Origin: Polyangiaceae bacterium
GTDB lineage: Bacteria > Myxococcota_A > Polyangia > Polyangiales > Polyangiaceae
Assembly: GCA_025937835.1 (NCBI GenBank)
Contig: JAICQO010000041.1
Span: forward strand, 1-52,253
Length of the DNA: 52,253 nucleotides
Direction: 5' to 3'
Both the position numbers and the translations under genes were made by a program. This document shows, piece after piece, positions 1 to 4,632 of this stretch; the stretch's first letter is position 1, and every line of letters begins with the position of its first letter. The notes under the pieces are model-generated. The model was not told the DNA's origin and ran no database searches. It saw only the letters and a list, made by a program, of their open reading frames with translations.

Positions 1-2
1 CA

Positions 3-140
3 CGGCTTTCTGAGCTTTTGTCGCCAAGGCGCCAAGGAGCGCCAAGAGTCGCCAATTTTTTTTTTGGTGAACAGTGCGCGCACAGCGCGTCTGAGCAACG
101 TCGGTTTTCGACCCTTCACTGCCGGACCAACAAACAGAAC
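3..140 (+). repeat. Dispersed repeat, copy A1
   Basis: First of two direct copies about 152 bp apart. The unit opens with CGGCTTTCTGAGCTTTTGTC, runs through four spaced GCCAAG/GCCAA motifs, then a run of T, GGTGAACAGTGCGCGC and a tail ending CAAACAGAAC. The same core recurs inverted at 376-730 and again at 4259-4632. No coding signal explains it; the open frames through it are low-complexity by-products. It probably lies downstream of a plus-strand gene left of the window, but that gene is not visible. Confidence 0.85.
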
Positions 141-154
141 CGCGCCGTCCCCGA

Positions 155-293
155 CGGCTTTCTGAGCTTTTGTCGCCAAGGAGCAGAGGGGCGCCAAGAG
201 CCGCCAAGTTTTTTTGGGGGTGAACAGTGCGCGCACAGCGCGTCCGAGCAACGTCGGTTTTCGACCCTTTACTGCCGGACCAACAAACAGAAC
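155..293 (+). repeat. Dispersed repeat, copy A2
   Basis: Second direct copy of the A unit, matching A1 from CGGCTTTCTGAGC to CAAACAGAAC with a few substitutions and small indels in the GCCAAG part. The interval 294-375 between this copy and the inverted B copies is unique, GC-rich and without a recognisable gene. Confidence 0.85.
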
Positions 294-375
294 CCTGGCG
301 TCCGTGGCGTTCTTTCTGGCGCCCGTGGCGGCAACTCCGGGCCGTATCGAGCGTCGTAGGCCTGCGGCTGGAATC

Positions 376-500
376 GCCGTTGTGCGGCGTTACTCGGACG
401 CGCTGAGAGCGCAGTGTTCCCCCAAAAAAAACTTGGCGACTCTTGGCGCTGCTTAGCGCCTTGGCGACAAAATCTCACAAAGCCCTGCTCCGAAATGGCC
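376..500 (-). repeat. Dispersed repeat, copy B1 (inverted)
   Basis: Read on the minus strand this is the same element as A1/A2: TTTTGTCGCCAAGGCGC, an inner stem-like part, GTCGCCAAG, a T tract, GGGGGAACACTGCGC and CGCGTCCGAG. It is the distal member of three tandem minus-oriented copies with periods of about 122 and 119 bp, downstream of the gene ending at 743. Confidence 0.85.
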
Positions 501-619
501 GAAGCGCGGTGTGACTCGGACGCGCTGAGAGCGCAGTGTTCCCCAAAAAACTTGGCGACTCTTGGCGCTTCTTAGCGCCTTGGCGACAAAATCTCACAAA
601 GCCCTGCCCCGAAATGGCC
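501..619 (-). repeat. Dispersed repeat, copy B2 (inverted)
   Basis: Middle copy of the B array, nearly identical to B3 through the core at 531-606. On the minus strand the core contains GGCGCT-AAGA-AGCGCC, a perfect 6-bp stem with a 4-nt loop, followed 13 nt later by six T and five G. The high identity between copies suggests recent duplication or gene conversion. Confidence 0.85.
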
Positions 620-730
620 GTTGTGCGCTGTTACTCGGACGCGTTGAGAGCGCAGTGTTCCCCCAAAAAACTTGGCGACTCTTGGCGCTTCTTAGCGCCT
701 TGGCGACAAAATCTCACAAAGCCTTTCCCC
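620..730 (-). repeat. Dispersed repeat, copy B3 (inverted)
   Basis: Gene-proximal copy of the B array. It begins, in minus-strand sense, about a dozen bases after the stop codon of the histone-fold gene (TAA, 745-743), so it would be transcribed as the 3' tail of that gene. It carries the same GGCGCT/AGCGCC stem and T tract as B2. Confidence 0.85.
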
Positions 731-742
731 AGCGGGGGTGGG

Positions 743-1261
743 TTAGCGTTTGAGAATGCCTTGGAAGTCGCGATCCATCACGGTTTTGCGGTTGGCGGCG
801 GTGGCGTTCTCGATGGCTTGATCGGAGATGCGGCGCAGGTGATCCGAGAGCACTTCGATCACGCCGTCGGACGTGGACATGCCGGAGCGGGCCTTGATGT
901 ACGCCTTGAGCTTGGACACGACGACCAGCACGTCTTCGGGGACCTCGCCCTCGGGCTTGGGTGGGGAGACCACGCGCCGCGCGGGGGCGGCCTCGGCGGC
1001 TCCCGTCGTGGACTCTTCCTTGGCGAGCTCGGCGAGGTATGTCGCGCGGCTGGGTGCCTGGGCCTGCTCCGCCCAGGCGTCGCGGTGGCGCTGCTCGGGC
1101 ACGTGCGCGTCCCAGCAGGGGACGGAGCAAAAGTAGTAGGCGACGCGCGCGCGATTGCAGGTCGACACGCTGCAGCGGTAGTACGCGCCCTCGAAGAAGA
1201 TCGGCTTCTTGCAAGTGCTGCAGACTTTGAAAGTGCGGTCGTCGAGGTCCTCTGCCGGCAT
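743..1261 (-). CDS. Zinc-finger / histone-fold fusion protein
   Basis: A 172-residue cytoplasmic protein with two recognisable parts. Residues 14-60 hold C14-x2-C17, C30-x4-C35, C45-x3-C49, H53 and H59, a two-zinc arrangement of ZZ/MYND type. After a Pro/Ala/Glu-rich linker, residues 109-172 look like one histone fold: a short helix, a long helix from about 131 to 157, the RKT motif (158-160) and a last helix opening with DRDF. Position by position this follows archaeal HMfB, including the Arg-Thr loop and the following Asp. It is probably a DNA-binding or chromatin-like factor, possibly dimeric. ATG 1261 has TATCCT 8 nt upstream. Divergent from argS across 49 bp. Domain calls rest on motif reading, not on a profile search. 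Confidence 0.8.
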   Translation of the reverse strand: MPAEDLDDRTFKVCSTCKKPIFFEGAYYRCSVSTCNRARVAYYFCSVPCWDAHVPEQRHRDAWAEQAQAPSRATYLAELAKEESTTGAAEAAPARRVVSPPKPEGEVPEDVLVVVSKLKAYIKARSGMSTSDGVIEVLSDHLRRISDQAIENATAANRKTVMDRDFQGILKR

Positions 1262-1269
1262 GGGCGCGT

Positions 1270-1275
1270 AGGATA
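1270..1275 (-). promoter_or_regulatory. -10-like hexamer of the histone-fold gene
   Basis: TATCCT on the minus strand, 8 nt before ATG 1261, with no Shine-Dalgarno. The spacing would give a leaderless or nearly leaderless mRNA. It lies where a -35 of the divergent argS promoter would fall, so the two promoters probably overlap. Confidence 0.45.
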
Positions 1276-1295
1276 CACCGCCTCGAGCCTCGTGT

Positions 1296-1301
1296 TATAG
1301 C
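1296..1301 (+). promoter_or_regulatory. -10-like hexamer of argS
   Basis: TATAGC on the plus strand, 9 nt before ATG 1311, with no purine-rich ribosome site between. Face to face with the minus-strand hexamer at 1270-1275. Confidence 0.4.
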
Positions 1302-1310
1302 CCTCCTCCG

Positions 1311-4258: not shown

Positions 4259-4345
4259 CGGCTTCTGTCGCCAAGGCGCAAAGAGGCGCCAAGAGTCGCC
4301 AAGGATTTTGTGGGGGAGCACTGCGCGTCTCATCCGGTCGCGGGA
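4259..4345 (+). repeat. Dispersed repeat, copy C1
   Basis: Starts on the base after the lipase TAA with CGGCTTCTGTCGCC, then GCGCAAAG, GGCGCCAAGAGTCGCC, a G/T tract and GGGGGAGCACTGCGCG. Same family as the A and B copies, and in the sense orientation of the lipase gene. Confidence 0.85.
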
Positions 4346-4425
4346 AAGGCTCTGACGGCTTCTGTCGCCAAGGCGCCAAGCCAAGGATGTTGTGGGGCGC
4401 AGTCTGCGTCGGAGTCGCGCGTGGA
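4346..4425 (+). repeat. Dispersed repeat, copy C2 (shortened)
   Basis: Second plus-oriented copy, opening with CTGACGGCTTCTGTCGCC. One GCCAAG subunit is missing, and the T tract is reduced to TGTTGTGGGGCGCAG. The TGA before CGGCTT matches the junction at the RND gene stop, as though a gene end had been copied along with the unit. Confidence 0.75.
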
Positions 4426-4500
4426 ACAGTCGGGTCGCGCAGACTCACGAGTGTCGCGACGACCAATGCGCCTCCAAAAACCCTTGCGAGTCGCTGCCGC

Positions 4501-4531
4501 CCTTTGCGCCTTTGCGCCTTTGCGGCGAAAA
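4501..4531 (-). repeat. CCTTTGCG tandem 9-mers
   Basis: Three consecutive 9-bp units of the form CTTTGCGCC followed by GGCGAAAAC, at 4501-4531. The subunit is a close cousin of the CTTGGCGCC subunit of the neighbouring elements, in the same orientation as C3. It appears to be a divergent member of the same family, or a second family of the same design, sitting inside the repeat cluster. Confidence 0.7.
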
Positions 4532-4564
4532 CCAACTGAGCCTTTTCAATGCCGACAAAGGCAT

Positions 4565-4632
4565 GCAGCGCGACCCCCAAAAAACTTGGCGACCCTTGGC
4601 GGCTCTTGGCGCCTTGGCGACAAAAGCCGTCA
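4565..4632 (-). repeat. Dispersed repeat, copy C3 (inverted)
   Basis: On the minus strand the element begins directly after the stop codon of the RND permease gene: TGA at 4632-4630 is followed by CGGCTTTTGTCGCC, three GCCAAG subunits, six T and five G. It is inverted relative to C1/C2 and again in the sense orientation of the gene it follows. Confidence 0.85.

What the first reader, a model, noticed from the sequence alone, without database searches (positions are those of the whole stretch)
743..1261. Zinc finger fused to a bacterial histone fold
The C-terminal 64 residues follow archaeal HMfB over the long helix and the RKT loop, including the Asp that follows, and the N-terminus has eight Cys/His zinc ligands in ZZ/MYND order. 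Single-histone-fold proteins are rare in bacteria. From memory, surveys of prokaryotic histones have reported a class with an N-terminal zinc finger; this would be a myxobacterial example or a variant of it. What it binds and whether it dimerises are unknown.
Basis: partly seen in the sequence, partly recalled or inferred. Interest (0 to 1): 0.75.

Follow-up and report, generated by a model that had tools for sequence, protein, structure and literature searches.

The report
Zinc-finger bacterial histone (ZZ histone)
The gene makes a small protein that joins a zinc-binding module to a DNA-binding histone; it is a clear member of a recently named family, the ZZ histones, and comparing its relatives shows that the two halves also exist apart, which narrows what the zinc half can be for.

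Summary
Window 1261-743 (minus strand) encodes 172 aa with eight Cys/His zinc ligands, a flexible linker and a C-terminal histone fold. The histone half matches the Bdellovibrio histone HBb (phmmer 2e-7; predicted structure Z 9.5, 0.9 A, 42% identity) better than archaeal HMfB (Z 6.8, 23%). Most HBb residues that touch DNA are kept, including the invariant R-K/R-T...R-D loop. Of 284 Myxococcota genomes sampled, 88 carry the finger. It is the only histone found in its own genome. The comparison adds points I did not find in the papers held. (1) Free-standing finger proteins occur in genomes with no detectable histone, so the finger is not mainly a histone-tail reader. (2) Three genomes have a finger plus two tandem histone folds in one chain. 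(3) In one Bdellovibrionales subclade the fused gene keeps an internal ATG and ribosome-binding site matching free histone genes at the same locus; suggestive only, since a synonymous-recoding test was not significant. Most likely function: a DNA-bending homodimer whose zinc modules recruit an unidentified partner.

The parts
743..1261 (-). ZZ histone gene, 172 aa, ATG at 1261, TAA at 743-745
   Evidence: homologues; alignment
1052..1234 (-). N-terminal two-zinc module, residues 10-70; ligands C14 C17 C45 C49 (C4 site) and C30 C35 H53 H59 (C2H2 site). The pairing is by analogy with Schwab et al. and the cross-brace fold, not shown here
   Evidence: conservation; model m37b8ecd27c2e; p62 ZZ domain is the best Foldseek match, weak
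938..1048 (-). helix 72-86 followed by a flexible linker 87-108 (low pLDDT)
746..937 (-). Histone fold, residues 109-172: helices 115-126, 133-155, 164-171
767..790 (-). RKTxxxRD motif (R158-D165): DNA-contacting KT and R, and the RD clamp
   Evidence: R158, T160, R164, D165 invariant in 67/67, K159 K/R; roles in HBb from PMC11317129

Best explanation
It is a ZZ histone. Two copies pair through their histone folds into a head-to-tail dimer that grips the DNA backbone in the minor grooves without sequence preference and bends it, as HBb does. A flexible linker carries one two-zinc cross-brace module per subunit away from the DNA. These modules bind a protein or peptide partner that is not identified, so the protein acts as a low-abundance adaptor or accessory chromatin factor rather than the bulk DNA packer. 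Shown by computation: the architecture, the conserved ligands, the HBb-like fold and DNA-contact residues, that it is the only detectable histone in its genome, that finger and histone also occur apart, and that some relatives carry two histone folds in one chain. Inferred: zinc occupancy, dimerisation, DNA bending, the partner, and low abundance (the last from the B. bacteriovorus relative in the literature).
For: Histone half: phmmer 1.8e-7 to HBb over residues 110-166; model superposes on HBb at Z 9.5, 0.8-0.9 A, 42-43% identity. Of 12 HBb residues named as DNA contacts in its crystal structures or simulations (T8, S9, K10, K12, K16, N22, T23, S24, A25, K52, T53, R57; PMC11317129), nine are identical here (S116, K117, K119, K123, T130, S131, K159, T160, R164, by the ungapped alignment); T8, N22 and A25 are replaced by V, S and D. 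The RD clamp (R158, D165) is invariant. Zinc half: eight ligands kept across 67 proteins, confident fold. Dimer as the working unit: finger plus two tandem histone folds in one chain in three genomes, G014, G167 and G267. Finger separable from the histone: free finger proteins in G038, G053, G058, G124 and G272, whose genomes show no convincing histone (best hits E 0.02 to 0.08, or none). No other histone in the own genome (next hit E 0.85). Low abundance of the B. bacteriovorus ZZ histone: PMC11390915.
Against: Neither zinc nor DNA binding has been measured for any ZZ histone in the papers I could read. Being the only histone in its genome would also suit a main packing role. No conserved neighbouring gene points to a partner or pathway. 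The finger model matches solved folds only weakly (best Z 4.2).
Confidence: 0.65

Rival explanations
1. It is the main chromatin protein of this bacterium: as the only histone it coats or compacts the whole chromosome, and the zinc module links neighbouring dimers.
For: Only histone detected in its genome; most DNA-contact residues kept.
Against: The B. bacteriovorus ZZ histone is poorly expressed (PMC11390915), and Bd3044 cannot readily replace HBb (PMC10627809). Many close relatives in the same family lack the gene, which is odd for a main packer. HU and IHF homologues were not surveyed here.
Confidence: 0.17
2. The zinc module reads histone tails, as eukaryotic ZZ domains of p300, ZZZ3 and HERC2 do.
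For: Best Foldseek matches are ZZ domains, and p300/CBP ZZ regions appear lower down.
Against: No second histone in this genome; free fingers in genomes without any detectable histone; Schwab et al. report that the eukaryotic pocket residues are not conserved.
Confidence: 0.06
3. The zinc module is a metal or redox sensor that switches DNA binding.
For: Eight Cys/His ligands, nearly invariant.
Against: Near-total invariance of eight ligands suits a structural site better; no gene of any kind is a conserved neighbour across the family.
Confidence: 0.1
4. The resemblance is chance, or the reading frame is not coding.
For: Each Pfam hit taken alone is below its cut-off.
Against: Conserved full-length homologues in many genomes; confident histone fold matching HBb at 0.8-0.9 A.
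Confidence: 0.01

Closest known systems
ZZ histones (Schwab et al. 2024, PMC11390915), e.g. D0LYE7 of Haliangium ochraceum, and B. bacteriovorus Bd3044 (taken to be its ZZ histone)
   Same: N-terminal two-zinc module with C4 and C2H2 sites in the same order, C-terminal HBb-like histone, RKTxxxD motif; occurs in Myxococcota and Bdellovibrionota
   Different: The window protein has a longer predicted last helix (8 residues) than the 3-4 given for alpha3 histones; no second histone in its genome
HBb / Bd0055, bacterial dimer histone (PDB 8CMP, 8FVX, 9EZZ, 9F0E)
   Same: Histone fold at 0.8-0.9 A, 42-45% identity, most DNA-contact residues and the RD clamp
   Different: HBb has no zinc module and is abundant and probably essential (PMC11317129, PMC10627809)
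HLp, face-to-face histone of Leptospira (9QT0)
   Same: Same fold, 39% identity, Z about 8
   Different: HLp is tetrameric and wraps DNA (PMC12701072); weaker match than HBb
HMfA/HMfB, archaeal nucleosomal histones
   Same: Histone fold, RKT loop, RD clamp
   Different: 21-24% identity and Z about 7, clearly further than HBb
Eukaryotic ZZ and MYND zinc domains (p62, PRT1, p300; ZMYND8)
   Same: Top-ranked Foldseek matches of the finger alone
   Different: Weak scores (Foldseek E 0.04 at best, Z 3 to 4); ligand spacing CX4C in the second pair and CX3C in the third

Membership tests
ZZ histones (Schwab et al. 2024) | N-terminal zinc domain with a C4 and a C2H2 ligand set in the published order | tested here: met
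   C14 C17 C30 C35 C45 C49 H53 H59; seven invariant, C45 in 65 of 67; order as
ZZ histones (Schwab et al. 2024) | C-terminal histone domain like the bacterial dimer histones | tested here: met
   HBb is the nearest structure
ZZ histones (Schwab et al. 2024) | Actually binds zinc | not testable with these tools
   needs metal analysis
alpha3 histone superfamily | Central helix 4-5 residues shorter than in nucleosomal histones | tested here: met
   Aligns without gaps to HBb, whose central helix is a turn shorter than HMfB's (PMC11317129); helix 133-155 in the model
alpha3 histone superfamily | Last helix truncated to 3-4 residues (10 in nucleosomal histones) | tested here: inconclusive
   Model gives 8 residues (164-171). 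Polyangiaceae and Bdellovibrio ZZ histones often extend a few residues past F166, others stop there. Helix ends in a monomer model are uncertain
Bacterial dimer histones (HBb) | Single histone fold without other domains | tested here: not met
   N-terminal zinc module is present
Archaeal nucleosomal histones | HMf-type histones are the nearest relatives | tested here: not met
   HBb Z 9.5, HMfB Z 6.8
Eukaryotic ZZ domain | Same fold as solved ZZ domains | tested here: inconclusive
   ZZ domains rank first but weakly; the Pfam ZZ family is not among the 25 families listed for 53 members
HBb-type DNA binding | Homodimer that bends DNA | not tested
   No multimer prediction or binding assay available; residues conserved

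The most novel reading that the evidence does not exclude
The finger and the histone are two modules that evolution joins and separates. The finger has a job that does not need a histone (free fingers in genomes without a detectable histone). In one Bdellovibrionales subclade a single gene makes two proteins: the full ZZ histone and, from an internal start, a free HBb-like histone that these genomes otherwise lack.
Probability: 0.35. Interest if true: 0.62.

Novelty: new member of a known kind. Interest (0 to 1): 0.38.

Why it matters
Bacterial histones are newly recognised, and in the papers read only HBb and HLp have been studied in depth; what the zinc half of ZZ histones does is open. The comparison makes that question testable. 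Free finger proteins in genomes with no detectable histone argue that the finger's partner is not a histone tail. They also offer the finger alone, and the tandem-histone forms offer a built-in dimer, as ready-made reagents. The internal-start subclade, if real, would be a bacterial gene that supplies both a plain and a tagged histone.

Tried and rejected
Conserved neighbourhood as a guide to function: no shared neighbour across the family; argS, divergent from the gene here, is not next to it in the relatives examined (one distant locus, L044, has a weak argS hit over 1 kb away). A second histone in the own genome: searched with Pfam PF00808 and with an HBb-like protein, only background hits. 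Finger profile against solved chains: only cytochrome c3 and a weak MYM/TRASH match, taken as composition noise. Pfam DUF7576 (E 0.003) and QH-AmDH_gamma hits are below cut-off and shared by few members. Phage records: no match. Internal Shine-Dalgarno in eight Bdellovibrionales genes: 8-61% of synonymous recodings were as strong, so the site by itself is not beyond chance. Free-finger candidates at contig ends or beside masked bases (L146, L149, L209) were set aside. The histone-domain tree has too few columns to resolve most forks.

Full report
What is there. Window 1261-743, minus strand, is an open frame of 172 aa starting with ATG and ending with TAA. Two longer overlapping frames exist (536-1300 plus, 1532-714 minus), but the 172-aa frame has homologues: 22 of 58 related genomes carry a match, the best full-length ones 45-65% identical and free of stops, and one scan of the species-genome collection returned 80 loci, about two thirds of them full-length, mostly from Myxococcota and Bdellovibrionota. 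In a phylum-wide sample, 88 of 284 genomes have the finger (63 of 194 good-quality ones).

Histone half. phmmer finds the Bdellovibrio histone HBb at 1.8e-7 and the Leptospira histone HLp at 9e-6. AlphaFold2 on 53 sequences gives mean pLDDT 86.6 with helices 115-126, 133-155 and 164-171. This part superposes on HBb with Z 9.5, 0.8-0.9 A and 42-43% identity; HMfA and HMfB follow at Z about 7 and 21-24%. In HBb the DNA-contacting residues include T8, S9, K10, K12, T23, S24, A25, K52, T53 and R57 in the crystals, with N22 and K16 added by simulation (PMC11317129). By the ungapped alignment the equivalents here are V115, S116, K117, K119, T130, S131, D132, K159, T160 and R164, with S129 and K123. 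S116, R158, T160, R164 and D165 are invariant in 67 homologues, and K159 is K or R.

Zinc half. Eight ligands, C14 C17 C30 C35 C45 C49 H53 H59, are invariant except C45 (65 of 67). Folded alone, residues 1-86 give pLDDT 88.7. Foldseek ranks p62 ZZ domains first (E 0.04, probability 0.92), followed by a MYND-containing chain (PRKCBP1/ZMYND8); VIA-align scores are only 3 to 4. So 'ZZ/MYND-like cross-brace' is a fair name, but membership of the eukaryotic ZZ family is not shown.

What is known. Schwab et al. 2024 (PMC11390915) define ZZ histones by this layout and report that the eukaryotic pocket residues are not conserved, that about half of the proteomes with a ZZ histone have a second histone, and that the B. 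bacteriovorus one is little expressed. Bd3044, the second B. bacteriovorus histone, is mentioned in PMC10627809 and PMC12701072. That Bd3044 is the ZZ histone is my inference: only two histones are named in that species and Bd3044 is the longer one. One review (PMC11318664) calls both genes essential, whereas the passages of the primary paper that I read report deletion attempts for bd0055 only.

What the comparison adds. (1) Free fingers: G038, G053, G058, G124 and G272 encode short finger proteins (66-68 aa in four of them) that stop at or just after the end of the finger, with no histone frame downstream and no convincing histone elsewhere in the genome; G097 and G133 carry a second, free finger beside their ZZ histone. 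(2) Tandem forms: finger plus two histone folds in one chain in G014, G167 and G267. (3) Modular switching: eight ZZ-histone genes of one Bdellovibrionales group (L048, L056, L057, L059, L061, L064, L065, L068) have an in-frame ATG just before the histone fold, preceded by AAAGGGA, AAAGGAG or GAGGAG; from that ATG on they closely match free histones in L096, L098, L099 and L103, and so do their ribosome-binding sites. Where flanks are long enough, both kinds lie at the same locus, downstream of the same gene (71-80% identical, ending in a GGDEF-like domain). The tree of that neighbour puts the free forms beside fused ones at two places (100/100 and 99/97 support), and each of these genomes shows just one histone gene. 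The internal start is therefore either a working second start or the seam of a fusion. The synonymous-recoding test was not significant, so I do not claim it as shown.

Mechanism. A bending homodimer with an adaptor module on a flexible tether is the explanation that best fits these observations. The histone half is that of a protein with a known DNA-bending mode; tandem forms suit a dimeric working unit; and the finger's independent life points to a binding role of its own. The zinc content, dimer, bending and partner are all inferred.

Verdict. Ordinary as a discovery (a new member of a published family), well supported, and useful because the relatives sharpen the open question about the finger.

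Noticed in passing
L148 3972-4178 (G038), L153 (G058), L154 2382-2582 (G053), L144 3636-3842 (G124), L145 (G272): Free-standing finger proteins, mostly 66-68 aa, in genomes with no convincing histone; not described in the papers read.
   Followed up: partly
L161 (G014), L186 (G167), L195 (G267): One chain with a finger and two tandem histone folds, a single-chain histone pair.
   Followed up: partly
L048, L056, L057, L059, L061, L064, L065, L068 versus L096, L098, L099, L103: Fused ZZ-histone genes keep an internal ATG and a ribosome-binding site very like those of free histone genes at the same locus; possible two-product gene or fossil fusion seam.
   Followed up: partly
window 1-730 and about 4275-4613: Intergenic repeat array (units of 153 and 119 bases, in opposite orientations) right behind the histone gene; 39 matches to its core in the genome, several near contig ends, against none for the reversed control pattern.
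   Followed up: partly
window 1262-1310: Only 49 bases separate the start codons of the divergent histone and argS genes; the arrangement is not conserved in the relatives examined.
   Followed up: yes
PMC11390915, Fig. 4 legend: The printed ligand list for D0LYE7 (C20 C23 C51 C53; C36 C41 H59 H65) equals the window's plus six at every position except the fourth of the C4 set, where spacing predicts 55; possibly a misprint. D0LYE7 itself was not fetched.
   Followed up: no
window 748-771 (residues 164-171): Last histone helix predicted at 8 residues, longer than the 3-4 said to define alpha3 histones; several Polyangiaceae and Bdellovibrio relatives also extend past F166.
   Followed up: partly
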